Source: Nitrosomonas sp.
GTDB lineage: Bacteria > Pseudomonadota > Gammaproteobacteria > Burkholderiales > Nitrosomonadaceae
Direction: 5' to 3'
Assembly: GCA_017994575.1 (NCBI GenBank)
Contig: JAGOKN010000006.1
Coordinates: forward strand, 1-55,563
Length of the DNA stretch: 55,563 bases
The notes beneath the pieces were generated by a model that was given only the letters and a program-made list of their open reading frames with translations, was not told the origin of the DNA and did no database searches. The position numbers and the translations under genes are program-made. Below, one piece after another: positions 28,034 through 54,850 of this stretch. Position 1 is the stretch's first letter; every line of letters begins with the position of its first letter.

Positions 28034-30319
28034 TTAGAATATGAAGTCGTCTGCATTGACTTCAGCACCTGTAACACCGACCAAGAGAATCTGACCTTCA
28101 AATGCATCGCTGGTGATCAATACACCGGCGGCTACGTCAGTAGCTACCAGATCATCAATACCATTGGTGAGGCCGAGTGCTGACAAATCGATATTGTCAT
28201 CGGTCAAATCGCCACCTACCTCAATATCATCAATGGCTACATTGCCGGTAAAAGCAGTAGTGAACACAAATGTGTCGGTAAATCCTAATGTACCAAACAG
28301 TTCTGAAGCTTCGTCACCGCCCCCAACGTCATCAAAATCATAACTAGCGGTGGCAGTTGCGCCCAAATCGGCTAACGTGAATGTGGTGCCATAACCCAAA
28401 GTATTAGCAGTCATTTCAAAACCACCTGTTTGACCGGTCAAATCAATGTTAGCGATTTTAACGGTTGCATCGTTGGTGGCATCAGCATCAGTAATATCTG
28501 TGATGATGATATCGCCCGCGCCTGCAAAACTCAATGCTGACACGCCATCGGTTTCAATTGCGGTAAATGTGGTGTCATCAGTATCTGCAGTGGTGGTTAC
28601 GTTCACTGTTTCAACGCCAGTCACATCTAAAGCAGCTATTGTAGTCGCGGCTTCTGCATTAATCGTTAAACCGAGGGTATCTTCATCACCGACGGAAGTC
28701 ACGGCAATAGCAGCTGTTTGATTATCCTGAACTTCAATGGTGCCCGCATCAAGATTATCAACGGTCAAACCTATCACATCGCCTGCAAGCACGATTTTTG
28801 TAAACGCAAAGTCAGCATTATCAAAGGTATTGCCGCCAACTCCTGCTGCACCCAATTCGAGTATTTCAAAAGCAGTGTGCGCTGTTGCATCTAAAGCAGT
28901 AGCATCATCAGCATCGGCGAATGCTATAGTGTCTTCACCGTCACCACCTGCAACCGTATCAAGATTATCCAAAGCTGCCGCTGCAAACGCAACTCTGTCA
29001 TCGCCAGCACCGGCATCAATGGTGTCATCTCCGGCACCTGCGGTAATATCATCATTACCTGAGCCGCCTGTGACGGTTAAATCAGCAGCAGCACCGGTCA
29101 GATCAACAGTAACACCTCCGGTATTGCCAGAAGCATCCACAGTTTCCAATGCAGTCACATCAACAACAGCGGCAATTGATCCATCACCGGTCACGGTCAA
29201 TCCTGTGATAGCAGTAAATGCTGACACATCAACAAAGTTCTCGCCGGTTGCAGCAATGCTCATGGTTTCAATCGCAGCGGCATCGGTTGTCGAATCAACA
29301 ACGGCATCGGTGGTGTCATTACCAGCGCTGGTAACTGCCAAGGCCAGATTATCTTCGGTACCGGTTACGTCATCAAAGGTGTCGATATCTGTAGTTGATC
29401 GGGTATTTCTGAGACCAAAAGTCGCTGCAATCGGTGCAGTGGTATAAGTCAAAACTGCTGCACTTGATGACACATCATTCCAAATTTGCTCAGCACCGGT
29501 GGTATCGCCAAAGTCAACATCTGAGCTGGTTACAGCACGAATATTTAAAACTTCAATATTTGAAACGACTGGAGCAATATTGTCAGCATCCAGCGTTGCA
29601 TTCAGTGTGTCTCTGCCAGCGCCGCCATCGAGAATATCGATATTTTCCAGACTATTTACTAATCCGCTAAAACCATCATTGACTACTGCAGCGGTAAAGG
29701 TGTCATTACCTGCGCCGCCGGTAAAGATGTCTGCACCAAATGTAAGTGTAAATGTTCCACCTACGTTGGCGCCTTGACCAATGCTATCCAAGTAGGCTGC
29801 AGCATCTTCCGCAGTGGTTGGGCTGCTTGCTGACACGCCTGCCAGAATGGATTGCAGGGTTGCCAAATCATTGGAAGAGTGTTCTTTAGAATACAACTCT
29901 GCTACCAGTGCTTTGTTGTTCAACAGCGCGGCTGCATCAGCAAACAATTCTGGTGCTGGATCAGTAGACAGGAAAGCAACTGCGTTGAAAACAAGCTCTC
30001 CGATGCCTACGCCGGCTTCGAGTTGCTCTGTAAAGAAAGCCGCAGCCAGAGAACCTGCACTTTCCGGATCAGCTTCATCAGCCACGAGACCAAAATTAGC
30101 CATCAGAACATCGACTTGGTCTTCAACGGTAACTCTACCGGCCATAATGCCGTTGGTAAATGATGAATGAGCTGCCAAAGCATCAGCCAACTGCCTTGTA
30201 GTCATACCGCCTTCTATCAAATTTGCGAAGTCCGTTAATATGCTGCCACCAGGCGCTGCATTGTACAAACCTGCGACAATCTTCAGAATTTCAGTTTCCT
30301 GTGTTTTTGGTATAGCCAT
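28034..30319 (-). CDS. RTX / S-layer-like secreted surface protein
   Basis: 761 residues, very rich in Asp, Thr, Ala and Val, acidic, and without a single Cys. There is no N-terminal signal peptide. Residues 1-180 are a helical, Ala-rich domain. RTX calcium-binding motifs follow at 201-208 (GGAGNDTF), 232-239 (GGAGRDTL), 418-443 (GGSGNDDI, GAGDDTI, GAGDDRV) and 458-465 (GGDGEDTI), within long Thr/Val-rich beta repeats (such as VTALETVDASGNTGGV). The C-terminus ends DDFIF, typical of type I secretion signals. The features resemble RsaA-type S-layer proteins and RTX adhesins. AAGGGAG precedes the ATG. The likely exporter is the type I system at 44.8-49.3 kb; that pairing is inferred. Confidence 0.85.
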   Translation of the reverse strand: MAIPKTQETEILKIVAGLYNAAPGGSILTDFANLIEGGMTTRQLADALAAHSSFTNGIMAGRVTVEDQVDVLMANFGLVADEADPESAGSLAAAFFTEQLEAGVGIGELVFNAVAFLSTDPAPELFADAAALLNNKALVAELYSKEHSSNDLATLQSILAGVSASSPTTAEDAAAYLDSIGQGANVGGTFTLTFGADIFTGGAGNDTFTAAVVNDGFSGLVNSLENIDILDGGAGRDTLNATLDADNIAPVVSNIEVLNIRAVTSSDVDFGDTTGAEQIWNDVSSSAAVLTYTTAPIAATFGLRNTRSTTDIDTFDDVTGTEDNLALAVTSAGNDTTDAVVDSTTDAAAIETMSIAATGENFVDVSAFTAITGLTVTGDGSIAAVVDVTALETVDASGNTGGVTVDLTGAAADLTVTGGSGNDDITAGAGDDTIDAGAGDDRVAFAAAALDNLDTVAGGDGEDTIAFADADDATALDATAHTAFEILELGAAGVGGNTFDNADFAFTKIVLAGDVIGLTVDNLDAGTIEVQDNQTAAIAVTSVGDEDTLGLTINAEAATTIAALDVTGVETVNVTTTADTDDTTFTAIETDGVSALSFAGAGDIIITDITDADATNDATVKIANIDLTGQTGGFEMTANTLGYGTTFTLADLGATATASYDFDDVGGGDEASELFGTLGFTDTFVFTTAFTGNVAIDDIEVGGDLTDDNIDLSALGLTNGIDDLVATDVAAGVLITSDAFEGQILLVGVTGAEVNADDFIF

Positions 30320-30792: not shown

Positions 30793-31623
30793 TTGCGTCT
30801 GTTGAACATTACCTTCTTTGAAATTTTTCTCAGTCTGAAGCGACATTACCCTCTGATCCTGCAATTGATCAAAAGAGAGGTTGTCGGTCGCTACAGAGGC
30901 TCGCTCTTGGGCATGTTGTGGTCGCTGATCAATCCCATTTTGATGCTTGCCATCTATACATTTGTTTTCAGCGTGGTATTTAAAATCCGCATGGATCAAC
31001 AAGACGGCAGCATTTATGATGACAAATTTGCTTTCGCTTTAGTGTTATTTGTCGGGCTGATTATTTTCAATCTGTTTTCTGAATGTCTGTCACGGGCACC
31101 CGGATTGATTCTTGCCAATGTTAACTATGTTAAAAAGATCATTTTTCCGTTGGAAATTCTGCCCTGGGTCAATTTAGGCTCCGCGCTGTTTCATGCCGGC
31201 ATCAGTTTTTTAGTGCTATTGGGCTTTTTATTGATTATTGATCATCCCATTCACTGGACATCGATCTATCTACCGATTATTGTGCTTCCGCTGCTTTTCC
31301 TCATCCTGGGCTTATCCTGGTTTCTCGCATCCATTGGCGTGTTTGTGCGCGATATCGGACAATTTATTGGTTTGATTTTAACTATGCTGATGTTTATGAG
31401 CCCTATTTTTTATCCCGCATCTGCACTGCCAGCATCTGTTCGTGATTATTTATTTTTGAATCCGCTCACCTTTATCATTGAGCAAACGCGCACAGTGATT
31501 TTATATGGCCAGTCACCCAACTGGATCGGTCTTGCTGTCTACTATGCAATCGCTTTACTGATCGCATGGGTCGGTCTGATATGGTTTGAGAAAACACGCA
31601 AAGGGTTTGCTGATGTCCTTTGA
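30793..31623 (+). CDS. wzm: Wzm-type polysaccharide ABC transporter permease
   Basis: 276 residues. KREVVGRYRGSLLGMLWSLINPILML at the start is the ABC-2 family signature of O-antigen/teichoic acid exporters, and about six membrane helices follow. With Wzt it exports a lipid-linked polysaccharide across the inner membrane. No ATG exists upstream of the conserved region; TTG at 30793 (or TTG at 30802) is the likely start. The stop overlaps wzt by 11 bases. Confidence 0.88.
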   Translation: MRLLNITFFEIFLSLKRHYPLILQLIKREVVGRYRGSLLGMLWSLINPILMLAIYTFVFSVVFKIRMDQQDGSIYDDKFAFALVLFVGLIIFNLFSECLSRAPGLILANVNYVKKIIFPLEILPWVNLGSALFHAGISFLVLLGFLLIIDHPIHWTSIYLPIIVLPLLFLILGLSWFLASIGVFVRDIGQFIGLILTMLMFMSPIFYPASALPASVRDYLFLNPLTFIIEQTRTVILYGQSPNWIGLAVYYAIALLIAWVGLIWFEKTRKGFADVL

Positions 31624-32860
31624 TCTCGCCCCCCAGGCAGCAGCTATCAGGGCTTCCAAGCTGTCCAAATGCTATCAGCTGTACCATCATCCCAAAGATC
31701 GCTTAAAACAGTTCCTGTGGCCACACAAATGGCTGGGTGCACGACAATATTACCGAGAATTATGGGCATTGCGCGACATTGATTTGATGGTAAAGCCAGG
31801 GGAAGTCGTGGGCATTGTGGGTCAGAATGGTTCGGGAAAATCGACGCTGTTGCAATTAGTCTGCGGCACTCTGACGCCTACCTATGGTGAAGTGCAAATC
31901 ACCGGCCGTATTGCAGCCCTACTGGAGCTTGGCGCCGGATTCAATCCCGAATTCACCGGGCGCGAAAATGTATTGATGAGTGCTGCGATTATGGGATTGA
32001 GTTCGGCAGAAATCGCGCATCGGCTTGAAGATATCATTGATTTCTCCGGCGTCCGTGATTTTATCGACCAGCCCGTCAAAACTTATTCCAGCGGCATGTA
32101 TGTGCGTTTGGCATTCTCAGTAGCGATCAATGTAGACCCGGATATTCTGGTTATTGATGAAGCTTTGTCGGTCGGCGATGGTGCTTTTGCGCACAAATCA
32201 TTTTCCAGAATCATGCAAATGCGCGATGCGGGCAAAACAATACTATTCTGCTCTCATTCGCTATTTCAGGTTGAATCATTATGCGCGCGCGCGCTATGGA
32301 TTAATCAGGGACAAGTAGTCGAAGATGGTGAATCCGCGCAAGTGGTTTCCGCTTATCAAGCCTTTCTGGATAAAAGCACACCCAATTCATCACCTCAACA
32401 AGCGCCCATTGCGAGCAAAAACACCACAACACCGGGCAGTGCGCATCTTGAAAAGATAAAATTGCAAGCAAATGGCATTGACACGCAGCATGCAATTATC
32501 ACCAGCGGCCAATCCAGCATCACCATAGACGTTACCTTTGCTTCAGATCCCTCATTACCTTGCCCCAATCTAGCCATGGCATTGCACAACGAGGATGGAA
32601 GAATTATCACTAGCGCAGCAACCTGGGAAGATCAATTTTCCATACAGCGCGCATCTGATGGCTCGGGTCAGATTTGCCTCAGATTGGATCACCTGCCACT
32701 GCTTAAGGGCACGTACCTGATCAATATCTATCTACTCTGTGATCGCGGTCTGCATCTGTTCGATTCAGCAGAGAGGGTTGCCACCTTGCAAGTAAGGCAG
32801 GCAGGCCGCTTACAAGGTTATTTTTCAATTCCTCATCAATGGGAAAACCATAATATTTAA
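31613..32860 (+). CDS. wzt: Wzt-type polysaccharide ABC transporter ATPase with C-terminal binding domain
   Basis: 415 residues from ATG 31613 (an upstream TTG is less likely). ATPase domain: Walker A GQNGSGKST (70-78), signature YSSGM, Walker B ILVIDEALSVGD. A linker rich in Ser, Gln and Thr follows. The last 150 residues form a beta-sandwich Wzt_C-like domain (LAMALHNEDG, LPLLKGTYLINIYL). In O8/O9-type systems this domain recognises a chemically capped chain end before export. It overlaps wzm and ends 4 bases before the methyltransferase-GNAT gene. Confidence 0.9.
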   Translation: MSFDLAPQAAAIRASKLSKCYQLYHHPKDRLKQFLWPHKWLGARQYYRELWALRDIDLMVKPGEVVGIVGQNGSGKSTLLQLVCGTLTPTYGEVQITGRIAALLELGAGFNPEFTGRENVLMSAAIMGLSSAEIAHRLEDIIDFSGVRDFIDQPVKTYSSGMYVRLAFSVAINVDPDILVIDEALSVGDGAFAHKSFSRIMQMRDAGKTILFCSHSLFQVESLCARALWINQGQVVEDGESAQVVSAYQAFLDKSTPNSSPQQAPIASKNTTTPGSAHLEKIKLQANGIDTQHAIITSGQSSITIDVTFASDPSLPCPNLAMALHNEDGRIITSAATWEDQFSIQRASDGSGQICLRLDHLPLLKGTYLINIYLLCDRGLHLFDSAERVATLQVRQAGRLQGYFSIPHQWENHNI

Positions 32861-32864
32861 TATA

Positions 32865-34694
32865 ATGACCAAAACCGCTCATTACCATTCAGCACAATCT
32901 GATACGCAGTCTTATCACCAAACTGACCCTGTTGATCCACTGGCAGTAACCTCACCTTCGCCTTTTAAACACTTGACCTTTCCACTGAATGTGTATGCGC
33001 ATGCGCTATTGTTAGAGGAAGGAAAAGCTGATTATTTGCACTTCGGATTGTTCCAAAATGACCAAGCCAGTCTACAGTCAGCGCAACAATTTTCAACGGA
33101 TTTGCTGATATCGAAGCTCCCTCCTCCGCCCTGCCGGATTTTGGAGGTTGGAGTCGGCCTGGGAACCACCTTTTCCTTGCTGAACAAGCGCGGCTATGAT
33201 GTCCATGGCATTACTCCCGATGCACAACAGATTGCTTATATCCAGGAATCCCAAGGCGCGGGAATTTCCATCAGTTGCCAAGCCTTGGAAGATTTCACGG
33301 CTCCGGCAGAAAGCTTTGATGTAGTCTTATTTCAGGAATCAGCTCAATACATCGAGCCATTGGATATTTTTAACAAAGCATTGGATTTGTTACCAATGCA
33401 AGGTGATTTGCTCATTATTGACGAATTCGCACTCAAGCGGACGCAAGCAGGCATGGAAGGATTACACCAACGGGATGAGTTCGTGGCGCTTGCGCAACGA
33501 TTTGGTTTTGACCTGATCGAGCAGATTGATTTATCAGCGATGGCAGCCCCCACACTTGAATACATGTTGAGCCTTGTCGGCAAGCATCAAGATCGTATCA
33601 TCAACGATCTTGAGCTGAGTAATGAAATGCTCACACAGTTAAACGCATCCAACCAGGCCTACCGGGAGAAATATGCCAATCAGAGATTTGGATATGGTTT
33701 GCTGCACTTCAAGAAAAGAGCTCAACCCAAATGGCATCTGCGGCAAATAAAAAAAGAACATATGCCGGCAGTACTCGACTTATTTAAGAACACATTCCAT
33801 CACTCCATGACTCCGGCAACTTGGCAGTGGAAATATGGCCATCATTCCGGATATCAAATTGGCGTATGGCGTGATGATCAATTAATCGCTCACTATGGCG
33901 GTTGCGGTCGCAGGATTCTGTTTTTTGGCCAGCCTCAGAACGCAGTACAAATTGCTGATGTCATGGTGAATTCGAACGATCGTGGCATTCTCACCAAAAC
34001 AGGTCCTTTCTGCTTGATGGCGGCAACCTTTCCTGAGCGATTCGTCGGGTATGGAAAACCATTTCTGTTGGGTTTTGGTTTTCCGAATGAACGAGCCATG
34101 AAAGTTGCTGAGCGGCATGGGTTATATGCAGAAGTGGGCTGCATGACGGAATTTTGTTGGCCATCATTGCCTAAATTGCCGCTCATGGGAACCAAGCTGC
34201 GGCAGCTGGATGGACATCTTCTGGAAGATGACAAGGCTGCTGTCATTATTGATGAATGCTGGCAGCAAATGGCTGGAGATTTGCGCGATGCCATGGTTGG
34301 CATACGTGATTGGAATTATTTAAAACATCGTTATCTCCATCATCCAACCCAGCAATATCAAATCATATTGGTCAAAAATCGTTTCGGAAAAAAAGCACGG
34401 GGCGTATTAGTGCTGCGTCATGATTCAACGAGCTGTGAAATCATGGATATGATTGCTCCTCTCTCTGAAATTCCTTTACTGATCAAACATGCTCGGCGAA
34501 TTGCTGGGATTGCTGGTTATCGCGAAATTTCCTGCCGCATCACAAAAAACTTCGCATCCTATTTTGTGAATACGGGAGGCATTCAACATCCGCTCAATAT
34601 CCATATACCAGCCACTATTTGGACTGACGGCCCATCCGTTGAATCTCTCCGTAACCATTGGTGGTTAATGAGTGGAGACACAGATTTTCGTTAA
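32865..34694 (+). CDS. SAM methyltransferase - GNAT acyltransferase fusion
   Basis: 609 residues with two enzyme domains. The N-terminal class I methyltransferase (about 75-260) has the SAM motif ILEVGVGLGTT (92-102) and post-motif GYDVHGITPDAQQI. After a short linker, residues 290-600 form a GNAT-like acyltransferase (RQIKKEHMPAVLDLF, NSNDRGILTKTGPF, GFGFPNERAMKVAERHG). It follows wzt after 4 bases, so it should act on the same glycan. I infer capping or modification of the exported chain. The fusion is unusual to me; no exact family name can be given. Confidence 0.72.
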   Translation: MTKTAHYHSAQSDTQSYHQTDPVDPLAVTSPSPFKHLTFPLNVYAHALLLEEGKADYLHFGLFQNDQASLQSAQQFSTDLLISKLPPPPCRILEVGVGLGTTFSLLNKRGYDVHGITPDAQQIAYIQESQGAGISISCQALEDFTAPAESFDVVLFQESAQYIEPLDIFNKALDLLPMQGDLLIIDEFALKRTQAGMEGLHQRDEFVALAQRFGFDLIEQIDLSAMAAPTLEYMLSLVGKHQDRIINDLELSNEMLTQLNASNQAYREKYANQRFGYGLLHFKKRAQPKWHLRQIKKEHMPAVLDLFKNTFHHSMTPATWQWKYGHHSGYQIGVWRDDQLIAHYGGCGRRILFFGQPQNAVQIADVMVNSNDRGILTKTGPFCLMAATFPERFVGYGKPFLLGFGFPNERAMKVAERHGLYAEVGCMTEFCWPSLPKLPLMGTKLRQLDGHLLEDDKAAVIIDECWQQMAGDLRDAMVGIRDWNYLKHRYLHHPTQQYQIILVKNRFGKKARGVLVLRHDSTSCEIMDMIAPLSEIPLLIKHARRIAGIAGYREISCRITKNFASYFVNTGGIQHPLNIHIPATIWTDGPSVESLRNHWWLMSGDTDFR

Positions 34695-44239: not shown

Positions 44240-44707
44240 ATGACCGAAACATCCCAGTTTTTAGACAATCGATATCAAAATCGTCGTCAAAATATGCCAT
44301 TCTTCTGTGCTTTTCATCTGGGAATTAAAGCTGGAAGAAGGGTTAGTGAGCGCAGAGCAGGAAGGGGAAAGCCCAGATATGTTGATTATTATGCAAATCA
44401 TTTGATGCTTTGTACGATTGCTATTTTATTTTTTTGTATACTTGATGCATTTCTGACTCTAAATATCTTAGCTCAGGGCGGTGAAGAACTTAATTGGTTT
44501 ATGGCAAACTTGATCGAAAATAGCACAGAAAAATTTATTGGTTTTAAATTTACACTGACTTCTCTGGCACTCATATTACTTGTTATTCACCAAAATGTTC
44601 AACTAACGAAAAATTTACGTGTAAGGCATATTAAGTACATGATATTATTCTCCTATAGCACTCTAATCAGTTACGAGTTATACCTACTGGAGTTGATGGC
44701 TGCTTGA
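44240..44707 (+). CDS. DUF5658-like membrane protein
   Basis: 155 residues. A basic N-terminal region (KAGRRVSERRAGRGKPRYVD) precedes three or four membrane helices: about 55-75, 98-117 and 130-150. LDAFLTLNILAQGGEELNWFM resembles the DUF5658 core. Function is unknown. It lies alone between the IS graveyard and the convergent tolC. Confidence 0.7.
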   Translation: MTETSQFLDNRYQNRRQNMPFFCAFHLGIKAGRRVSERRAGRGKPRYVDYYANHLMLCTIAILFFCILDAFLTLNILAQGGEELNWFMANLIENSTEKFIGFKFTLTSLALILLVIHQNVQLTKNLRVRHIKYMILFSYSTLISYELYLLELMAA

Positions 44708-44773: not shown

Positions 44774-46126
44774 TTATCGTAAAACAGAAGATTGATGATG
44801 ATTGATAATAAAATAACCAGCAATATTTCTTAAGTCATCAAGAACCAAGGTACCGGAAGCTAGTTGCAATCGTAAATACGCAAGTAAATAGTTATATCTG
44901 GCTTCTGCAAGATCACGTCTAGCGGTATGTAATTGTTGTTGAGCATCCAAGAGATTCAAATTTATCCGTATGCCCCCCCGAATACTTTTTTGTGTAGCGT
45001 CAACCAGCAATTCGGCCGACTTGACAGCAAGCTCCAGTGATTCAATTCTTTTAACACCACTTAATAGCAAATTATATTGTTTACGTAGCTCAACCAATAC
45101 TTTATGGGTTATGGCATCTAAATCAGCTTCCGCACGCGCATAATTTGCTTTTGCTTGAGCAGTGAGAGCATTTACACGCCCACCTGCATATAAAGGGACA
45201 TTGACCTCAAAACCGATGGTACCGAATTCGGCATCTTGCCCTCGTGTAATAAAGGATCCTCGGTCATTCTTTGTTAGACTCGCCACCAAATCAACACGTG
45301 GCGCATGACCAGCAAAACTTTTTCTAATTTCTTCTTTACCTGATGTCACGGTATGTCGCTGTGTCAACAACTCTGCATTGCGCTCCATGGCTAAAGCATA
45401 CCAATTATCATAATCCTGAAGTTGGATAGCATTTGAACTGAACGTGTCGGATAAATGGTCCAATTGGATTATCTTCTGTCCTACAATCGATTCAAGCTTA
45501 AGCTGTGCGACTTCCAGCTCATCTTTCGCTTCAATGACGCGCGCTTGAGCTATCGCATGCTTCGATTGTGTCTCAAGCACATCGGTCGTAGTCCCTTCCC
45601 CTTTCTCTAACATGCGCTCATTGACACGTTTCAGTTCTTCCAAGGAATTAAGTTGAGTTTCAGCAAGTTTTACGTGATCCTGCGCAAGCAATGTTTCCAC
45701 ATAGGCTTCTATCAATCGAACCACAAGCTGTTGACTACGGCCGGTAAATTTAGCGCGACTAGATTCCGCCTGCGCTTTTCCAATCCGATAGCTAGCAAGT
45801 GCTTCCATATTAATTAAAGGCTGGCGCAAAGATAATGTAGTCACTTGACTATCAAAATCAAGCGAACTAGAAGTACCATTTTGCACTATGGTTCCAGAAC
45901 TTTTACTCTGTGAATGAGTGAACGATAAATTAGGTAGCAAATTTGCCAGACCAATGGCCTGAGCTTGCTGCCCAGCTTCATTTTCATGATAGGCAGAGCG
46001 ATAGATCGGATCATGCTCCAATGCCGCTTCATAAGCCTCTAAAAGACTGAGTGCCTGAGCATGGCCGATCTGGGTTAAAGCAATAGCACAGACAAGGCTA
46101 GCAATTCTTTTTCGAGCGAATCTCAT
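44774..46126 (-). CDS. TolC-family outer membrane channel of a type I secretion system
   Basis: 450 residues. A signal peptide covers about 1-25 (cut near HAQA). SLLEAYEAALEHDPIYRSA is the conserved start of the mature protein; the two outer-membrane-efflux repeats and long coiled regions follow. It forms the trimeric channel through periplasm and outer membrane. It begins 5 bases after the HlyD-type adaptor gene, so prtD-hlyD-tolC form one operon. Confidence 0.92.
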   Translation of the reverse strand: MRFARKRIASLVCAIALTQIGHAQALSLLEAYEAALEHDPIYRSAYHENEAGQQAQAIGLANLLPNLSFTHSQSKSSGTIVQNGTSSSLDFDSQVTTLSLRQPLINMEALASYRIGKAQAESSRAKFTGRSQQLVVRLIEAYVETLLAQDHVKLAETQLNSLEELKRVNERMLEKGEGTTTDVLETQSKHAIAQARVIEAKDELEVAQLKLESIVGQKIIQLDHLSDTFSSNAIQLQDYDNWYALAMERNAELLTQRHTVTSGKEEIRKSFAGHAPRVDLVASLTKNDRGSFITRGQDAEFGTIGFEVNVPLYAGGRVNALTAQAKANYARAEADLDAITHKVLVELRKQYNLLLSGVKRIESLELAVKSAELLVDATQKSIRGGIRINLNLLDAQQQLHTARRDLAEARYNYLLAYLRLQLASGTLVLDDLRNIAGYFIINHHQSSVLR

Positions 46127-46131
46127 CTCAA

Positions 46132-47484
46132 TTACTCTTCACTCATAGATGAATGAACGCGATCTAAAATGGGCTTGAATAGATAACTCATCAACGACCG
46201 TTCACCTGTTTTAATAAATATCTCCACCGGCATACCTGCTCTAATCTGCTGATCAGATAATTGTTTCATACCTTCAGGAGTGACCTTGGCTTTTATATTA
46301 TAATAAGGCAAACCGGTACGCTCATCGGTTAAGCGATCTGCGGATACTTGGGTAACGGTTCCTGGAATATTCGGCGTCTTCTTTTGATTAAGCGCAGAAA
46401 AAATCAGATCAACATCAAGACCAATATGCACCTTGTCAATCAAATGGACAGGTACTTGTCCAGTAATCACTAATAAATCATCGCTGGGAACGATATCCAT
46501 CAACTTGAATCCTGACCCGATAACCCCTCCCTCTGTAAATACATTCATGCCCACAACAATACCATCAACAGGAGCTTTAACTTCTATGTTGGCTAACTCA
46601 AAATCCTGTCCGATCAAGCGGCTGTTCAGCGCATCCGCCTCTCGCTGAATATCTGATAATTTTTGTCGCACTTCCTTTTGGTGTTCTTGTTGCAGTTGGA
46701 TGCGGCGCTGTTGCAGCTCGGCTATCTGGCGCTGGATACGACCGATGTTACCAATATCCGCTGAAATTTCACCGGTTAGTTGAGTATACGTGCGCTCAAG
46801 ATCCAAAACACGATTGCGAGGTACAAAACCATCGTTTGCCAAATCACGCAAGTTAGAAACTTGCTCTTCTATTAATTTCAACTGCTGACTTTTACTCGCT
46901 TTTGATGCCTCAAGACCACGTAGTTGCACCTTTAACCCAGCGGAATTTTCGTCTAGAGCAGCGATCTCATGATGCAATGCTAACTTCCGCGATGTGAACA
47001 ACTGATTCTGAATGATCATGCTGTTGGCAATACGTAAATCCTCTTGTTGTGACAACAACTCGGCAGGAAATGTAATTTCATGCTTACCATCACGCTCTGC
47101 CAGCAAACGCGCTTCCACAGCACGCGCGGCGTAGAGCTGAACACGGGTTATTTCAGCTTGCGCTTTGGTTTGAATATCGTTCATGCGCACTAACACTTGG
47201 CCCAACTTAACATGATTCCCTTCCTTCACCAGAATGCTATCGATAATTCCGCCAGTTTGATGTTGCACAGCCTGAAGATTGCTTGCCACGGTCACCGTGC
47301 CTGAAATCGGCACACCTTTATCCAGAGGCGCAAATGATGCCCACAGAACAGATCCTAAAAAACCGACCAAAACAATCCACCAACCAAGTTTGGTATGAAT
47401 GGTTTCATCAGTTTCAACTAGACTGGATTTGTCGACCGGAATGCTCTCAATAATTGTCTCTTTTTCTTTAGCAACAAGCTTCAT
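46132..47484 (-). CDS. HlyD-family membrane fusion protein of a type I secretion system
   Basis: 450 residues. One membrane helix at about 33-50 (WWIVLVGFLGSVLWASFAPLDKG) anchors the protein. A lipoyl/barrel-sandwich segment (VQHQTGGIIDSILVKEGNHV), long coiled coils (about 125-285) and the second half VKAPVDGIVVGMNVFTEGGV follow. The C-terminus has the conserved GMPVEIFIKTGER. It links the ABC transporter to TolC. CAGGGAT precedes the ATG. Confidence 0.93.
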   Translation of the reverse strand: MKLVAKEKETIIESIPVDKSSLVETDETIHTKLGWWIVLVGFLGSVLWASFAPLDKGVPISGTVTVASNLQAVQHQTGGIIDSILVKEGNHVKLGQVLVRMNDIQTKAQAEITRVQLYAARAVEARLLAERDGKHEITFPAELLSQQEDLRIANSMIIQNQLFTSRKLALHHEIAALDENSAGLKVQLRGLEASKASKSQQLKLIEEQVSNLRDLANDGFVPRNRVLDLERTYTQLTGEISADIGNIGRIQRQIAELQQRRIQLQQEHQKEVRQKLSDIQREADALNSRLIGQDFELANIEVKAPVDGIVVGMNVFTEGGVIGSGFKLMDIVPSDDLLVITGQVPVHLIDKVHIGLDVDLIFSALNQKKTPNIPGTVTQVSADRLTDERTGLPYYNIKAKVTPEGMKQLSDQQIRAGMPVEIFIKTGERSLMSYLFKPILDRVHSSMSEE

Positions 47485-47543
47485 TATTATCCCTGTTCGA
47501 TGATCCGTATTTTTTCAATGAGTAATAAACGGTGATACACAAT

Positions 47544-49328
47544 CTAACTAGCTTCTGGATTAGTCGCATTAGTCGGCATTGGATTCTGAGTAGCTTGCTT
47601 CTTGGCTTCCTTCTGCGCCAGAAGTGCTTGTTGAGCTTGTTGCTGTTGCTTGTTTAAAGCCTCAATCACCTGATTGGTAGGCCCAAACAGCTTGGCTGCT
47701 CCATCCTGTAGCAATAGCAACTTACTGGTGACACTGATAATACTGGTGCGATGGGTAATTAAAACAATAGTTTTCCCACGTTTACGTAAATCAGTCAATG
47801 CAGCCAATAGCGCCTGCTCACCGACATCATCCAGATTTGAATTTGGTTCATCTAACACAATCAATGAAGGGTCATCATACATGGTGCGCGCCAAACCAAG
47901 GCGTTGTTTTTGTCCACCCGACAGGCCTGCGCCGCCATCCCCCAATGGAGTGTCATAACCTTCAGGCATATTCAAAATCATTTCATGCACGCCTGCCCGT
48001 TTGGCAGCAAGAATGACCTTTTCTGCGTCAATTTCTCCGAAACGTGCAATATTCTCGGAAACAGTGCCTGCAAATAATTCGATATCTTGTGGCAAATAAC
48101 CGACATATGGCCCCAACTCATCTTTGTTCCACAGATAAACGTCGGCACCATCCAATCGTACTTTGCCAGCCGCCGCTGGCCATACACCAACCAATAAGCG
48201 TGCCAGTGTGGATTTTCCTGAACCGCTGGGACCAATGATGCCGAGTACATCTCCAGCAGCAAGAGAAAAAGACAATCCCTTGATAACAGGAACCTTACTG
48301 CCGGGCGGGATCGCGGTCACATTTTCAACCGCAATAACACCAGTAGGTTTGGGAAGTGCCATCCCTGCCTCTCGAGCAGGATTTTGTTCAAGCAATTTGG
48401 TCAAGCGCTCATAAGCACTGCGCGTATTGCCAATCTGTTTCCAGACACTGATCAACAACTGAACCGGTGCAATGGCTCTGCCCAACAAAATTGAACCCGC
48501 AATCATCATGCCAGGGGTAATGCTGTTATCTAAAACCAGCAAAGCACCCAATCCCAACATCAGGGATTGCAATGCAACCGTACAAGATTTGGAGAGCGCG
48601 GTAACAATACCGGCTTTTTCACTGGCTTCAGCTTGCAAGTTTAAAAAACGGCTATGTAATTTGTACCATCGGGATTGAATATTTGGCAACATACCCATGG
48701 CCTCAATCACCTCAGCATTACGCAGATTATTCGATGCCACATTGGTTGAGGCAATGGCCATTGAATTTGCTTCCGCCAAAGGTTTGTGTGAGATTTTTTC
48801 GTTGATGTACGCCAGAGCAATTAATATGGCCGTGCCGCATAGCGCAAAAACGCCTAAACCAGGATGAAACATAAAGATAACGAACAAATAGATCGGAAAC
48901 CAGGGCGCATCAAAAAAAGCAAACAAAGCGTTGCCAGTCAAAAACTGCCTCAAGTTGGTTAAATCCTTCAATGCCTGCCCAGCATTGCCATCACCTTGCT
49001 TTAAACTTTGCTCAAAAGCTGCGGTATACACGCGCTTATTCAGTTTCATATCAAGCTGGGCGCCAACTCGAATCAGTACAAAGCTGCGCACATATTCCAA
49101 GGCACCCATAAAGCTATAGGCACCGATCATAATCAATGTCAGCATCAGCAAAGTCATTTCGTTGCGACTGGTTAATACGCTGTCATAAAGCTGCAGCATA
49201 TAAATGGCTGGCATGAGCATCAGCATATTGATGACCGCACTAAAAACACCAATATTACGAAAAGTTTTTTTAAAGCTGGCTAATACTTGCGCAACTTCAT
49301 TTTGTGGAGCTTTAAATTTGAATTTCAT
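47544..49328 (-). CDS. type I secretion ABC transporter (PrtD/AprD type)
   Basis: 594 residues. The N-terminal membrane domain has about five or six helices (for example 30-50 and 60-80). The ATPase has Walker A GPSGSGKST, signature LSGGQKQRLGLAR and Walker B LIVLDEPNSNLDD. It lacks an N-terminal peptidase domain, matching exporters of proteases, lipases and S-layer proteins with a C-terminal uncleaved signal. The C-terminal tail is Gln/Ala-rich. It is the first gene of the secretion operon; its likely cargo is the RTX protein at 28-30 kb. Confidence 0.93.
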   Translation of the reverse strand: MKFKFKAPQNEVAQVLASFKKTFRNIGVFSAVINMLMLMPAIYMLQLYDSVLTSRNEMTLLMLTLIMIGAYSFMGALEYVRSFVLIRVGAQLDMKLNKRVYTAAFEQSLKQGDGNAGQALKDLTNLRQFLTGNALFAFFDAPWFPIYLFVIFMFHPGLGVFALCGTAILIALAYINEKISHKPLAEANSMAIASTNVASNNLRNAEVIEAMGMLPNIQSRWYKLHSRFLNLQAEASEKAGIVTALSKSCTVALQSLMLGLGALLVLDNSITPGMMIAGSILLGRAIAPVQLLISVWKQIGNTRSAYERLTKLLEQNPAREAGMALPKPTGVIAVENVTAIPPGSKVPVIKGLSFSLAAGDVLGIIGPSGSGKSTLARLLVGVWPAAAGKVRLDGADVYLWNKDELGPYVGYLPQDIELFAGTVSENIARFGEIDAEKVILAAKRAGVHEMILNMPEGYDTPLGDGGAGLSGGQKQRLGLARTMYDDPSLIVLDEPNSNLDDVGEQALLAALTDLRKRGKTIVLITHRTSIISVTSKLLLLQDGAAKLFGPTNQVIEALNKQQQQAQQALLAQKEAKKQATQNPMPTNATNPEAS

Positions 49329-50364: not shown

Positions 50365-51255
50365 TCAGTGCCTTACAATCAGTTGTCTCACTGCATAGAA
50401 CACAACAGTAACGCCAAAACGAAACCATATACCCACTGCAACCAATCCCATCAGTACGCTTGGATATTGTTGGCGGAAAAATTTTTGATAAAAGCGCAGC
50501 ATGCTTTTATGCTTATGCCAAGCGACGAAAAATGGACGACCCCGACTGCAAGTACCTTGAAAATGTGTAACTGGAGCATCGGGCACAAAAACAATCTTCC
50601 AGTTCTTTTGCTTAAAACGCATGCACCAATCCAAATCTTCGCAATGCAAGAAATAGCCTTCATCCCAGACGCCCACGTCTTCAATGGCTTCTCGCCGCAC
50701 CAGCATCAGCGCTCCTGAGATTGCTTCCACTTCGATAGATTCTTGAGGTAACGGTTGCTTGTGCAAATGAAAGTCAAAAAATATTTTAGGCCAATATTTT
50801 TCCAGATGATATAAGCCAAAAGCCCTGACAAAAGCACGCCACGGCGAAGGAATGGCACGCCTTCCGCCACCTTGCTCAGAGCCATCCGGATTAGTCAGAT
50901 AGCCCCCGACCATACCAATAGTTGAATCCGATTCTAATACTTGCACCAAATGTTTTAATACCCCACTTTGAAGCATACAATCCGGATTCAAAAACAGAAT
51001 GTAGGGTTGTGTTGCGGCGTTCAGTCCTTTATTACAACCAGCTGCAAAACCGATATTGCTTTCAGAGCGGATAATGCTCAGTCGGTTTTCTAAAGAGAAT
51101 TCAGACTCCAGGTTTAACACACTGGAGTCTGATGAAGCGTTATCGACCACGATAACTTGCCGTGCCTGTTCAAGCGCAGCATGAACGCATCTTGTCAGCA
51201 ACGAGCCGGCATTGTAATTGACGATAATAACCGTTACTGAATCAAGATCAAGCAT
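50365..51255 (-). CDS. family 2 glycosyltransferase (WbbL-like)
   Basis: 296 residues. VTVIIVNYNAGSLLTRC, VVDNASSDSS, GFAAGCNKGLNAA and LFLNPDC are the GT2 donor-binding motifs; GGGRRAIPSPW and ISGALMLVRREA follow. One hydrophobic C-terminal helix (about 265-290) probably binds the membrane. Such proteins add rhamnose or a related sugar to lipid-linked or secreted glycans. It overlaps no gene but is 6 bases from the SDR gene and divergent from the three-domain glycosyltransferase. Confidence 0.9.
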   Translation of the reverse strand: MLDLDSVTVIIVNYNAGSLLTRCVHAALEQARQVIVVDNASSDSSVLNLESEFSLENRLSIIRSESNIGFAAGCNKGLNAATQPYILFLNPDCMLQSGVLKHLVQVLESDSTIGMVGGYLTNPDGSEQGGGRRAIPSPWRAFVRAFGLYHLEKYWPKIFFDFHLHKQPLPQESIEVEAISGALMLVRREAIEDVGVWDEGYFLHCEDLDWCMRFKQKNWKIVFVPDAPVTHFQGTCSRGRPFFVAWHKHKSMLRFYQKFFRQQYPSVLMGLVAVGIWFRFGVTVVFYAVRQLIVRH

Positions 51256-51497: not shown

Positions 51498-51743
51498 GTG
51501 TTACGCCATAATGACACCTTATTGATCTTCATTGCATCGGCTTTATTCGCAACGACCAAGGAAAAGGCCGCTCTTCCAATACTGGAAACTATTGAAATGC
51601 TTGCTGACTTTACCGATAAAAAATCTTCAATTATCAATTCCGGACAATTCAAAAGGATGATTAATCAGCTACATCCCCTTGTAATAAATCAAAGTCCGCT
51701 TCTTGGTCTCAGTCCGATTCAACCGTCTAGTAAGCCAGCATGA
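51498..51743 (+). CDS. small unknown protein coupled to the large glycosyltransferase
   Basis: 81 residues from GTG at 51498. A hydrophobic start (LLIFIASALFATTKEKAA) is followed by a polar segment. The TGA stop overlaps the ATG of the next gene as ATGA, typical of coupled translation, which supports it being a true gene. The start codon is uncertain. No family recognised. Confidence 0.55.
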   Translation: MLRHNDTLLIFIASALFATTKEKAALPILETIEMLADFTDKKSSIINSGQFKRMINQLHPLVINQSPLLGLSPIQPSSKPA

Positions 51744-54700
51744 ATATGCTTACGACGCCTGCGCAACCTCTGGTGAGCATCATCATCCGCAGCATGAATC
51801 GATCGACACTTGCAGAGGCTCTCGATTCTGTGTGCAGTCAGATTTATCCAAGCATTGAAGTCATCGTCGTCAATGCCAAAGGTGGCGATCATACCGACCC
51901 TACCTCAAACTGTAATCGATTTCCGCTGCAACTGATCAATCAGGGCGGAAAACCTATGGGACGGAGTGCTGCCGCCAATGCCGGTTTGGAAGCAGCTCAA
52001 GGGAATCTATTGGGCTTTCTCGATGATGACGACTTGTTGCTCCCTGAACATGTGACACGTCTCGTTGAAGCCTTGGATACTCATTCAATGGCTGTCGCGG
52101 CCTATTCGTGCGTACATGCGCTAGATTTTAACGGGAATTTGCTACGTGAATTTGCCACGCCATTCGATACAGTTTCGCTGCATCTAGCCAATTTCTTGCC
52201 TATCCATGCTGTTTTATTTCGCCGCCAGGCATACACAACAGGAGCCCGCTTCGATGAAGCACTGGATCTCTGCGAGGATTGGGATTTCTGGATACAGATT
52301 GCCCAACAAGGTGATTTCATTTTCGTGGATGCCATGACAGCAATTTATCGCATTGGCGGAGAGAGCGGATTTGCCATCATAGGCGATCCAGAGCTTGCCA
52401 GAGCAGCTGAACAAGCCGTTTGTGCGAAGTGGCAAATCCGCATGAATGCAGACTTGTTCTATGAAGTTGTCAATCGGGCACGCACCTTCCCAAAATTACA
52501 AGAAGCACAAGTACATAACGATCATCTTCAATTTGAAGTGAAAGATTTAAAACGCATGCTGACGGATTCGAATCGAATATTGAGCAAAGCAAATCAAGCT
52601 CAATCGGAGTTGCATCGTCTGCACGAGGATACAATCGCAATGTACGAAAATTCGCGTTCGTGGCTCATTACCAGGCCACTGCGCAAAATTTCCACTCAGG
52701 TATATTTAGCCAAGCGCGCCTGGCTTGGATTTGGTTTGTTGGATTGGCATGCACGTTTGCGGGTATTAGCTTGGCTAATGAGTGGACAAATAGCACCTGC
52801 GCGACGCAAACTATCTCTCGCCGTCCAAGCAACTGATGAGGTATCGCACCAAAGCGCATTACCAGCTGCTGCTACACCGCGTATGCACGAGAACCAGCCT
52901 TCCCTTCCGGCTTTACCGGAGCGGATCGATGTTTTGATTCCGATCTACAATGGTTTTGAATTTCTGGCGCCATTATTCGATAGCCTGGAATGTGCGCACA
53001 GCACTCCATTTCGTTTGCTGGTTTGCAATGACGCAAGCACGGACGAGCGCGTGCAACCTTGGCTGGAGCAGCGTTTACAGGATTTCCCTGATGCCATCCT
53101 GTTATGCAACGAAAACAATTTGGGATTCATAGGAACCGTCAATCGCCTGTTTGCGCAAGTAATGAATGATTTTGTGCTGCTCAATTCGGATGTGCAGGTG
53201 CCCCCATTCTGGCTTGAACGTTTGTTTGCACCGATGCTAGCAAATTCACAAGTGGCGAGCGTCACCCCATTTACCAATGCGGGTGCGATTTGCAGTTTTC
53301 CGCAATTTTTCATCGATAACGAGCTGCCACAAGGACTGAATGCACTGGCAGTGGATACGGTGCTTGCACGCCTTAAGGATGTGACAGCCATTGAGATCTC
53401 ATCAGGAGTCGGCTTTTGCATGGCCATTCGCTGGGAAGTTGCAAAACGCATCGGTTTATTTGATCCTATTTTTGGCAAGGGTTATCGCGAAGAAAATGAT
53501 TGGTGCGCACGAGCCAAGGCATTGGGCTACCAGCATGTTTTGGCCCCCAATCTGTTTGTATATCATAAGCATGGCGGTTCTTTTCCCTCTCAGGAGCGCC
53601 AGACGCTTGCTGATCGCAATGAAGCAATATTGCGTGCGCGTTATCCGGGATTGTTCGACTACTACGAGGATTTTATTCGACGCGACCCTATTCGACCACT
53701 CAGGGATTTTTTGTATCTGATGGTACTGGCAAAGCAAGCCGACCGCCCCGCTCTAGTGATTATTGACAACGCAATCGAAGGAGGAGCCTATGCGTATAGC
53801 CGTGAATTGATCGCTAATACTCTGGAGAGTGGAACGCCCGTTCTGCATTTACTCGATGATTTTCGTACGAGTGAATTACGCGCCGAATGGATGTCATCCA
53901 CCGAACGTTCGGTTCTGAATTTTAGCGATTACGCTGCATGGGGACGAGTGATTTCAGGCATCCAGGCAGGCAGCATTCTCATCAACAACCTTTATTCTTT
54001 CCGACAACCGATGGCGTTTTTGCATTGGCTGACTGATCAATCAGATATCGGTAATGTTCCTATCAGCATTGCTTTGCACGATTTCTTCATGCTGTGCCCG
54101 AGCCTGTTTCTCATCGATAGCGAACGCAACTATTGCGGCTTACCCGATAGCGCGACCTGCCATGATTGCTTTAGTCGCTTACCTATCGATTTCTCCGTTG
54201 GCGCTGACTCGATTGCTGAATGGCGCGCAACCTGGAAAAAGGCGCTGGCAATGATCGATAGCATAGTGGCATTCTCTAACAGTACGCGCGATTTATTCAT
54301 CCGCATCTATCCTGAATATGCCGAAAAAGTCGTGGTACAACCACACTCTATGGCACGCTTCCGCCACCATTCTATTTCGGTGGATCTAAACAAGCCGCTG
54401 CATATCGGTGTCGTTGGATCAATCGGTTGGCAGAAAGGCTGGAACATTGTCAAGCAATTATGCGAGGAAATCGATTCACGTCGCTTGCCGTATCGAGTCA
54501 CGGTCATTGGCGCCATGGTGCCGAATTTTTCCGCCGATTGCCTGAATGTAACAGGGCGCTATGAAAGAACCGCCTTGGCATCAGCCATTGAGCAATCGGG
54601 TGCGAATATCTTTCTGTTTCCATCGATCTGGCCGGAGACCTTTTCCTATGTTGCGCACGAATTAATGGCTTGCGGCGTTCCGCTGTGCTGTTTCAATCTC

Positions 54701-54850
54701 GGGGCTCCTGCCGAAGCAGTGGCGAATTACTCTACCGGATTGTTGCTAGACTACCAAGCCTCACCCGCTATGCTGCTCGAGCAGATGGAAAATTTTCGTG
54801 CACAGCTTTTGCATATGCGCAAGGAGAATGAGTGCCAATCTGCTGGTTGA
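51740..54850 (+). CDS. three-module glycosyltransferase (GT2-GT2-GT4)
   Basis: 1036 residues with three transferase modules. Module 1 (about 10-245) is GT2: VSIIIRSMNR, FLDDDD at 93-98, CEDWDFW. A coiled linker (252-300) and the NSRSWLITRPLRK junction follow. Module 2 (about 395-640) is GT2-like: IDVLIPIYNG, NDASTD (430-435), LLNSDVQ, and REENDWC. Module 3 (about 665-1030) is GT4-like: GVVGSIGWQKGW and PSIWPETFSYVAHELMACGVP with the E-x7-E pair. No membrane segments. Such proteins build glycans with several sugars; the acceptor is unknown. Coupled to the 81-aa gene by ATGA. Confidence 0.9.
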   Translation: MNMLTTPAQPLVSIIIRSMNRSTLAEALDSVCSQIYPSIEVIVVNAKGGDHTDPTSNCNRFPLQLINQGGKPMGRSAAANAGLEAAQGNLLGFLDDDDLLLPEHVTRLVEALDTHSMAVAAYSCVHALDFNGNLLREFATPFDTVSLHLANFLPIHAVLFRRQAYTTGARFDEALDLCEDWDFWIQIAQQGDFIFVDAMTAIYRIGGESGFAIIGDPELARAAEQAVCAKWQIRMNADLFYEVVNRARTFPKLQEAQVHNDHLQFEVKDLKRMLTDSNRILSKANQAQSELHRLHEDTIAMYENSRSWLITRPLRKISTQVYLAKRAWLGFGLLDWHARLRVLAWLMSGQIAPARRKLSLAVQATDEVSHQSALPAAATPRMHENQPSLPALPERIDVLIPIYNGFEFLAPLFDSLECAHSTPFRLLVCNDASTDERVQPWLEQRLQDFPDAILLCNENNLGFIGTVNRLFAQVMNDFVLLNSDVQVPPFWLERLFAPMLANSQVASVTPFTNAGAICSFPQFFIDNELPQGLNALAVDTVLARLKDVTAIEISSGVGFCMAIRWEVAKRIGLFDPIFGKGYREENDWCARAKALGYQHVLAPNLFVYHKHGGSFPSQERQTLADRNEAILRARYPGLFDYYEDFIRRDPIRPLRDFLYLMVLAKQADRPALVIIDNAIEGGAYAYSRELIANTLESGTPVLHLLDDFRTSELRAEWMSSTERSVLNFSDYAAWGRVISGIQAGSILINNLYSFRQPMAFLHWLTDQSDIGNVPISIALHDFFMLCPSLFLIDSERNYCGLPDSATCHDCFSRLPIDFSVGADSIAEWRATWKKALAMIDSIVAFSNSTRDLFIRIYPEYAEKVVVQPHSMARFRHHSISVDLNKPLHIGVVGSIGWQKGWNIVKQLCEEIDSRRLPYRVTVIGAMVPNFSADCLNVTGRYERTALASAIEQSGANIFLFPSIWPETFSYVAHELMACGVPLCCFNLGAPAEAVANYSTGLLLDYQASPAMLLEQMENFRAQLLHMRKENECQSAG

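What the first reader, a model, noticed from the sequence alone, without database searches (positions are those of the whole stretch)
30793..34694. Polysaccharide exporter coupled to a methyltransferase-GNAT fusion: candidate chain-capping system
wzm and wzt overlap and the fusion starts 4 bases after wzt. Wzt carries a C-terminal domain of the type that reads a capped chain end. In known O8/O9-type systems a methylating enzyme makes that cap. The fused GNAT domain suggests a second chemical step (N- or O-acylation) on the same chain, which would be a new variant of the cap.
Basis: inference. Interest (0 to 1): 0.7.

Follow-up and report, generated by a model that had tools for sequence, protein, structure and literature searches.

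The report
Acyltransferase-linked surface-glycan exporter in Nitrosomonas
An ammonia-oxidising bacterium carries a sugar-chain exporter tied to a two-part enzyme whose acyl-transfer half is kept more faithfully in its relatives than its methyl-transfer half, which suggests that the chain is marked for export by an acyl group, with methylation as a frequent extra.

Summary
In detail: wzm overlaps wzt, and four bases later comes a 609-aa methyltransferase-GNAT fusion. The window is Nitrosomonas. In all 71 Nitrosomonas genomes found with this GNAT it lies downstream of a Wzt of the same kind, so the coupling is real.

The SAM motif is damaged in 20 of 58 fusions and the methyltransferase is absent from the gene in 11 genomes; the GNAT is kept. 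In a class sample, 10 of 10 genomes with strong GNAT homologs carry a Wzt C-domain, against 79 of 359 others. Of 33 background Wzts, the four with C-domains nearest the window's are the only ones with a PF03279 acyltransferase gene seen nearby. I infer that this Wzt subtype reads an acyl-marked glycan, with methylation a frequent extra.

The fusion is not WbdD-like: no kinase, no coiled-coil signal. The neighbourhood includes an S-layer-like RTX gene (47 of 58 loci) and a PIG-L deacetylase (55 of 60). Local wzm is missing or truncated in 19 loci, each in a genome with a second wzm.

No glycan or enzyme activity was tested.

The parts
30793..31623 (+). wzm, ABC-2 permease of the polysaccharide exporter (TTG start)
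   Evidence: PF01061 E 1.4e-26; relatives at the same place at 67-99% identity
31613..32860 (+). wzt, ATPase with C-terminal glycan-reading domain (Wzt_C, DNA 32435-32824)
   Evidence: PF00005 and PF14524 above cut-off; start codon read
32865..34694 (+). methyltransferase-GNAT fusion, 609 aa; SAM motif I (residues ~92-102) intact here
   Evidence: PF08241 and PF13527 above cut-off; motif intact
33720..34694 (+). GNAT half of the fusion, the part shared with the GNAT-only homologs
   Evidence: alignment A2, 30 of 30 members match PF13527
28034..30319 (-). divergent RTX protein, S-layer-like: conserved N-terminal ~180-260 residues, variable remainder
   Evidence: PF00353 E 7e-10; residues 1-180 54% against 260-761 31% mean identity over 36 loci plus the window
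44774..46126 (-). TolC-like outer-membrane protein of a type I secretion system, possible exporter of the RTX protein
   Evidence: PF02321 E 2.6e-55
46132..47484 (-). HlyD-type membrane fusion protein
   Evidence: PF13437 E 5.5e-17
47544..49328 (-). type I secretion ABC ATPase/permease (PrtD-like)
   Evidence: PF00005 and PF00664; similar genes lie within 9.5 kb downstream of the fusion in 13 of 60 other loci and in the rtx-wzm-wzt locus L176
49471..50358 (-). NAD-dependent epimerase-like gene of the glycan cluster
   Evidence: PF01370 E 3.1e-12; similar genes downstream of the fusion in 23 of 60 other loci
50365..51255 (-). glycosyltransferase family 2
   Evidence: PF00535 E 7.9e-24
51740..54850 (+). 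multi-domain glycosyltransferase, 1036 aa
   Evidence: PF00535 and PF00534

Best explanation
This is an ABC-transporter-dependent surface-glycan system in which the fusion makes the mark that the Wzt C-domain reads, and the essential mark is an acyl group placed by the GNAT half. Likely course: glycosyltransferases build a lipid-linked chain in the cytoplasm; a PIG-L-type deacetylase frees an amino group on a sugar; the GNAT half acylates it; where a working methyltransferase is present, it adds a methyl group to the same residue; the Wzt C-domain binds the marked residue and Wzm-Wzt exports the chain. In most Nitrosomonas the glycan is probably the anchor for the RTX S-layer-like protein, which leaves by the type I secretion system encoded nearby. 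Shown here: gene order, domains, conservation, decay of the methyltransferase, genome co-occurrence, acyltransferase neighbours. Inferred: acyl transfer as the reaction, the sugar amine as target, the chain end as site, recognition by Wzt, and the S-layer role.
For: (1) Wzt upstream of the GNAT gene in 71 of 71 Nitrosomonas genomes that have it (window). (2) Methyltransferase decays: SAM motif damaged in 20 of 58 fusions (GxGxG itself lost in 18), domain absent from the gene in 11 genomes; all 58 keep DV[MI]V and the WWL..GD.D end of the GNAT half. (3) Class sample of 369 genomes: strong GNAT homologs in 10, all 10 with Wzt_C (one, G323, below the curated cut-off), against 79 of the other 359 (p 4.5e-7; 7.7e-6 without the two Nitrosomonas). 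(4) Wzt_C of 6 of 8 GNAT genomes outside Nitrosomonas scores 81-119 bits to the window's; the best of 33 background Wzts scores 62, even where GNAT and wzt are unlinked (G156, G408, G301). (5) Among those 33, the four nearest C-domains are the only ones with a PF03279 acyltransferase gene in the roughly 4-kb stretch taken around wzt (4 of 4 against 0 of 29; all four above the Pfam cut-off); the ATPase domain shows no such trend (p 0.29). (6) G057 and G026, Nitrosomonas lacking the GNAT, have a PF03279 acyltransferase directly after wzt, followed by a Methyltransf_24 domain. (7) PIG-L within 9.5 kb downstream in 55 of 60 loci; this genome's one PIG-L sits in a matching glycosyltransferase cluster on another contig; in L126 PIG-L, GT2 and GNAT are one protein. 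(8) RTX N-domain in 70 of 71 GNAT genomes against 3 of 14 other Nitrosomonas.
Against: Methyltransferases keep turning up with the acyltransferase: G060 has a GNAT fused to an unrelated FkbM-type methyltransferase, and L036, L037, L041, L159, L165, L176, L177 have others beside the acyltransferase; I did not check whether the GNAT-only genomes have a methyltransferase elsewhere. The GNAT half is not untouched either: 7 of 58 fusions lack the RG of its putative coenzyme loop, and its last part is only slightly better conserved than the methyltransferase (56% against 53%). Two of the 8 outside genomes (G323, G449) have a Wzt_C of another subtype (5 and -1 bits), and 3 weak GNAT homologs have no Wzt_C. 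For the GNAT link the ATPase domain is also closer (p 2.9e-4), so that part is not specific to the C-domain. Four genomes carry both acyltransferase types (G009, G072, G074, G342), so they are not strict substitutes. Thresholds were set after seeing the scores; without the two rows that helped build the acyltransferase profile, the neighbour test is 2 of 2 against 0 of 29, p 0.002. The Wzt_C profile did not match solved Wzt domains by sequence, so the pocket could not be compared. Structure models were unusable (pLDDT 39 and 50).
Confidence: 0.43

Rival explanations
1. The fusion decorates internal residues or a nucleotide sugar used in every repeat (an N-acyl, O-methyl sugar), and Wzt merely reads a polymer that contains it. 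It is then a sugar-tailoring enzyme, not a cap enzyme.
For: Neighbourhood rich in glycosyltransferases and PIG-L; in G156, G408 and G301 the gene stands apart from any glycan gene, as a tailoring enzyme might; no coiled-coil ruler.
Against: The constant neighbour in Nitrosomonas is wzt itself; there is a link to a Wzt C-domain subtype.
Confidence: 0.25
2. One reading: the methyl group is the mark that Wzt reads, as in O8/O9-type systems, and GNAT adds a second group to the same residue.
For: A methyl cap is the ligand of a solved Wzt C-domain (PMC9445017, passages); SAM motif intact in 38 of 58 fusions, the window among them; methyltransferases of other Pfam types stand beside or are fused to the acyltransferase in L036, L037, L040, L041, L159, L165, L176 and L177.
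Against: 20 of 58 fusions have a damaged SAM motif and 11 genomes lack the domain in this gene, with Wzt kept.
Confidence: 0.15
3. The acylated residue is a lipid-like anchor at the reducing end, as in the Vi antigen capsule, so the acyltransferase makes the membrane anchor that the exporter needs and not a terminator.
For: Vi antigen is exported by an ABC transporter and needs a terminal acylated HexNAc for efficient export; its acyltransferase VexE belongs to the LPLAT proteins (PMC9597891, passages); PF03279 genes stand after wzt in relatives.
Against: The window genome (85.8% complete) has no match to the slot-type acyltransferase profile; GNAT enzymes usually use short acyl-CoAs (recalled); the Wzt C-domain of Aquifex reads a non-reducing end.
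Confidence: 0.1
4. The fusion modifies the RTX protein, like the HlyC acyltransferases of RTX toxins (which have a GNAT-like fold; recalled).
For: The RTX gene is divergent and adjacent in 47 of 58 loci, and the 11 genomes where it is not adjacent have an RTX N-domain elsewhere.
Against: In those 11 loci the fusion stays with wzt and not with the RTX gene; no RTX match lies in the ten loci taken from other genera; no HlyC-family match.
Confidence: 0.05

Closest known systems
Capped-chain Wzm/Wzt exporters with a carbohydrate-binding domain (E. coli O8/O9a, Aquifex aeolicus; PMC9445017 and PMC3482155, passages)
   Same: Wzm, Wzt ATPase (best solved matches 6amx and 8dku; that these are the Aquifex protein is recalled), Wzt_C domain, a modifying enzyme encoded directly after wzt
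   Different: The constant modifying domain is a GNAT, the methyltransferase often decays, and the C-domain profile matches no solved one by sequence
WbdD and other coiled-coil chain terminators (PMC3482155, PMC11231755, passages)
   Same: Two-domain enzyme with an N-terminal methyltransferase, encoded beside the exporter
   Different: GNAT in place of kinase; no coiled-coil signal above shuffled sequence. In this genome a methyltransferase with such a signal sits at the second exporter (L132)
Vi antigen with VexE (PMC9597891, passages)
   Same: ABC-exported glycan whose export depends on an acylated terminal amino sugar; relatives of the window carry PF03279 genes after wzt
   Different: VexE is an LPLAT protein acting for the reducing end; the window uses a GNAT and a Wzt with C-domain
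Caulobacter RsaA S-layer on LPS O-antigen (PMC6978808, passages)
   Same: RTX protein with a conserved N-terminal part and variable remainder; T1SS and glycan genes in one neighbourhood
   Different: No sequence match of the N-domain to solved RsaA; binding to the glycan not tested

Membership tests
Wzm/Wzt exporter with C-terminal carbohydrate-binding domain | ABC-2 permease plus Wzt ATPase in one operon | tested here: met
   PF01061 and PF00005, overlapping genes
Wzm/Wzt exporter with C-terminal carbohydrate-binding domain | Wzt_C domain above the curated cut-off | tested here: met
   PF14524 39.3 bits against 30.4
Wzm/Wzt exporter with C-terminal carbohydrate-binding domain | Cap-binding pocket like that of Aquifex or O9a | tested here: inconclusive
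   Profile A6 gave no match to solved Wzt domains, only chance-level hits; no model of the domain was made
Wzm/Wzt exporter with C-terminal carbohydrate-binding domain | Export depends on a terminal cap | not testable with these tools
   Needs genetics and glycan analysis
WbdD-type terminator | SAM methyltransferase domain | tested here: met
   PF08241 E 2.2e-8, motif I intact in the window
WbdD-type terminator | Kinase domain (O9a type) | tested here: not met
   No kinase in the Pfam scan; GNAT instead
WbdD-type terminator | Coiled-coil molecular ruler | tested here: not met
   Heptad score 0.55, within its 20 shuffles (up to 0.62); positive contrast L132 scores 0.65, above all its 20 (a rough home-made test)
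GNAT acyltransferase | GNAT domain above curated cut-off | tested here: met
   PF13527 34.3 bits against 25; 30 of 30 members of A2 match
GNAT acyltransferase | Canonical coenzyme-binding motif A | tested here: inconclusive
   The conserved stretch after DVMV differs from the textbook Q/RxxGxG/A (motif recalled) and its RG is missing in 7 of 58 fusions
RsaA-type S-layer protein | RTX repeats and a type I secretion system | tested here: met
   PF00353; T1SS genes at 44774-49328; that they secrete this protein is inferred
RsaA-type S-layer protein | N-domain homologous to the O-antigen-binding RsaA N-domain | tested here: inconclusive
   No match to RsaA in PDB sequences; model pLDDT 50, not searched by fold
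Vi-antigen-like acylated terminus | PF03279-type acyltransferase of the slot kind in this genome | tested here: not met
   No match in G000 with profile A7 at E<=1e-5 (genome 85.8% complete); present in relatives G057 and G026

The most novel reading that the evidence does not exclude
There is a class of Wzt exporters whose C-domain reads an acyl mark. The mark is made by either of two unrelated acyltransferases (GNAT or PF03279), with methylation a frequent extra recruited from several methyltransferase families. In several Nitrosomonas lineages one remote Wzm serves two Wzt proteins with different C-domains, so that the ATPase alone chooses the cargo, and the exported glycan anchors an RTX S-layer.
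Probability: 0.3. Interest if true: 0.78.

Novelty: new variant of a known kind. Interest (0 to 1): 0.6.

Why it matters
Known export caps, as listed in a paper seen here in passages, are methyl, (methyl)phosphate or an added sugar such as Kdo (PMC9445017). An acyl-marked end would add a chemical class to the export code and give a handle on what unassigned Wzt C-domains bind. The natural series (fusion intact, methyltransferase decayed, GNAT alone, PF03279 plus methyltransferase) lets the roles of the two groups be tested in ammonia oxidisers. The wzm-loss pattern makes the idea of one permease shared by two Wzt proteins directly testable.

Tried and rejected
Rejected: GNAT acting on the RTX protein (see rivals).

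Led nowhere: AlphaFold2 of the fusion (3 rows, pLDDT 39) and of the RTX N-domain (2 rows, pLDDT 50); neither was searched by fold. Profiles of the GNAT half, RTX N-domain and Wzt C-domain found no convincing solved relative. No match in phages. The search for related loci in genome contigs gave two loci.

Weak or neutral tests: partial Mantel for the RTX N-domain with the Wzt C-domain gave r 0.39, the same as with the Wzt ATPase domain, so no sign of specific co-evolution. On a Wzt tree the wzm losses need at least 5 changes, but only 2 independent pairs stand on well-supported branches (5 on all branches), too few for significance. The Fisher values ignore relatedness.

Selections and limits: the 33 background Wzts were chosen by me at steps down the list, in stretches of about 4 kb, so an acyltransferase further off would be missed. 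Wzt of G342 was taken as the best of three. Profile A7 includes L043's 300-aa gene, which itself matches no Pfam family. L058 (contig edge) is outside the 19 but counted as lost. L102/L103 (one fusion split over two contigs) and L040 were left out of the motif count. The window itself is not among the 60 and 58 loci. An earlier count said 19 of 67 informative loci; the correct figure is 19 of 69 with the window.
Full report
What is there. The window lies in a Nitrosomonas genome (its 93% relative L071 is titled Nitrosomonas sp. RBC050; own genome 85.8% complete). wzm, wzt and the fusion look like one operon: wzm 30793-31623, wzt from an ATG at 31613 to 32860, fusion 32865-34694. The domain claims hold above curated cut-offs. 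Directly upstream and divergent is a 761-aa RTX protein (28034-30319). Downstream, beyond a response regulator and genes I take for mnmE and yidC by eye, the window carries TolC, HlyD and PrtD-like genes of a type I secretion system, an epimerase and two glycosyltransferases.

Distribution in Nitrosomonas. A search of 125 family genomes found the protein in 76 at E<=1e-3; five of these are weak methyltransferase-region matches, leaving 71 Nitrosomonas genomes out of 85. With the window they comprise 59 fusions (one split over two contigs), 11 GNAT-only genes and one fusion (G060, L040, 633 aa) of the GNAT to an unrelated FkbM-type methyltransferase. Wzt lies upstream on the same strand in all 71: close by in most, 3.3-4.4 kb away in three GNAT-only loci (L036, L037, L041) where glycosyltransferase, PF03279 and methyltransferase genes intervene.

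Which half matters. In 58 alignable fusions the SAM motif I is damaged in 20 (GxGxG itself lost in 18). All 58 keep DV[MI]V and the WWL..GD.D tail of the GNAT half, but 7 lack the RG of its putative coenzyme loop; three (L043, L050, L066) are altered in both. Mean pairwise identity over 36 fusions was 53% for the methyltransferase, 67% for the first part of the GNAT half and 56% for its last part. In the window lineage both halves are constrained (dN/dS about 0.14 and 0.13). So the methyltransferase probably works here but has decayed in a third of the fusions, more often than the GNAT. Against a simple 'methyl is dispensable' reading, other methyltransferases recur: FkbM-type fused in G060, Methyltransf_23-type beside the acyltransferase in L036, L037, L041, L159 and L165, Methyltransf_24-type in L176 and L177. 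Whether the GNAT-only genomes have one elsewhere was not checked.

Beyond the genus. In a class sample of 369 genomes, 13 had GNAT-half homologs at E<=1e-6: 10 strong, 3 weak. Wzt_C was found in 89 of 369; all 10 strong and none of the 3 weak have it (Fisher p 4.5e-7, or 6.5e-5 with the weak ones counted). In G156, G408 and G301 the GNAT gene stands apart from glycan genes and wzt lies on another contig; permease relatives lie on yet other contigs. Compared with the window's Wzt_C, the C-domains of 6 of 8 such outside genomes score 81-119 bits; the best of 33 background Wzts scores 62. G323 and G449 do not fit. The ATPase domains of these Wzts are also closer, so this comparison alone does not single out the C-domain.

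An acyltransferase slot. Among the 33 background Wzts, the four whose C-domains are nearest to the window's (62, 46, 41 and 32 bits) are exactly the four with a PF03279 acyltransferase gene in the stretch taken around wzt, all four above the Pfam cut-off. ATPase-domain similarity shows no such trend (p 0.29). Two Nitrosomonas without the GNAT (G057, G026) keep the wzm-wzt-glycosyltransferase-epimerase-secretion order; in both, the gene after wzt is a PF03279 acyltransferase, followed by a Methyltransf_24 domain (at the head of a 1314-aa glycosyltransferase ORF in G057, a 311-aa gene in G026). In G057 the rtx gene is divergent beside wzm; in G026, whose wzm and wzt are interrupted in the assembly, it is on another contig. 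I saw no PIG-L match in those two stretches. Four genomes hold both acyltransferase types. I read the common factor as acylation, with a methyltransferase frequently in attendance.

Deacetylase link. A PIG-L deacetylase, alone or as a domain of a large glycosyltransferase, lies within 9.5 kb downstream of the fusion or GNAT in 55 of 60 loci with at least 5 kb of sequence. In the window's genome the only PIG-L found is on another contig, in a matching glycosyltransferase order. In L126 PIG-L, GT2 and GNAT are one protein. Deacetylation followed by re-acylation of an amino sugar is the simplest reading, not shown.

Not a WbdD. The known terminators combine catalytic domains with a coiled-coil ruler (PMC3482155 and PMC11231755, passages). 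The fusion lacks a kinase and shows no heptad signal above shuffles; the 684-aa methyltransferase after this genome's second wzt (contig C13) does show one. The second exporter therefore looks like the classical methyl-type system, and the window's exporter like something else in the same cell.

Loss of the permease. In 69 loci with enough sequence (window included), wzm is missing or truncated in 19. All 19 genomes have a second wzm elsewhere, against 2 of 50 with an intact local wzm; four Wzt motifs are kept in all 19 apart from a Walker B pattern miss in one. At least five changes on the Wzt tree are needed, with too few independent pairs for a significance claim. Some truncations may be assembly faults, but G010, G089 and G091 are one-contig genomes. 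The simplest reading is that the local Wzt works with the remote permease.

RTX partner. A divergent RTX gene stands within 1.2 kb in 47 of 58 loci. Its N-terminal part is 54% identical on average, the rest 31%. The N-domain is present in 70 of 71 genomes with the GNAT system and in 3 of the 14 other Nitrosomonas (p 2e-10 ignoring relatedness); two of the 70 and one of the 3 are weak matches. By analogy with Caulobacter RsaA, which binds O-antigen with its N-domain (PMC6978808, passages), I infer that the glycan anchors an S-layer-like coat. No sequence match to RsaA supports this.

Literature. Of the held papers none contains Wzt, Wzm, GNAT and methyltransferase together, and none held four of the five terms of a search for two Wzt proteins. 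A broader search for acyl caps found 72 papers, of which I saw 15 as titles and abstract starts; none of these announces such a system. Acyl-dependent ABC export has a precedent in the Vi antigen (PMC9597891, passages). A terminal sugar bearing both acyl and methyl groups in ABC-type O-antigens of Bordetella is recalled, not read.

Verdict. Observation confirmed; interpretation partly supported and re-weighted from methyl towards acyl. New variant of a known kind; mechanism at 0.43 because no chemistry was tested.

Noticed in passing
window 30793 and relatives L031, L034, L041: wzm appears to begin with a non-ATG codon (TTG in the window; the first in-frame Met is about codon 41), and the relatives' reading frames begin in the same way.
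   Followed up: partly
L132 (own genome contig C13), 3639-7811: A second wzm-wzt with a different Wzt_C (115 bits to the Pfam model) followed by a 684-aa methyltransferase with a C-terminal coiled-coil signal: probably the classical methyl-capped exporter of this cell.
   Followed up: partly
L040 778-2679 (G060): The GNAT of this family fused to an FkbM-type methyltransferase (PF05050) instead of the Methyltransf_11 type: an apparently independent methyltransferase-GNAT fusion.
   Followed up: partly
L044, L050, L058, L062, L089, L098: Here the wzt-fusion pair has no wzm and stands divergent to dnaA (dnaA confirmed by Pfam in L044 and L098; by eye in the others); L063, L092, L094 and L097 lack wzm and RTX too but were not looked at for dnaA.
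   Followed up: partly
L036, L037, L041: GNAT-only loci in which a GT4, a PF03279 acyltransferase and a methyltransferase stand between wzt and the GNAT.
   Followed up: partly
L126 7504-10104: One 866-aa protein with PIG-L, GT2 and a C-terminal GNAT of this family.
   Followed up: no
L073 (G083), near 7900-8706: The closest relative of the window lacks the first ~72 residues of wzm, and its RTX gene starts only 47 bases away; a recent deletion or an assembly fault.
   Followed up: no
window 44240-44707: A DUF5658 protein beside the type I secretion genes; ORFs of 154-156 aa with a look-alike start lie in L176 and L177 (by eye, not compared with the window's).
   Followed up: no
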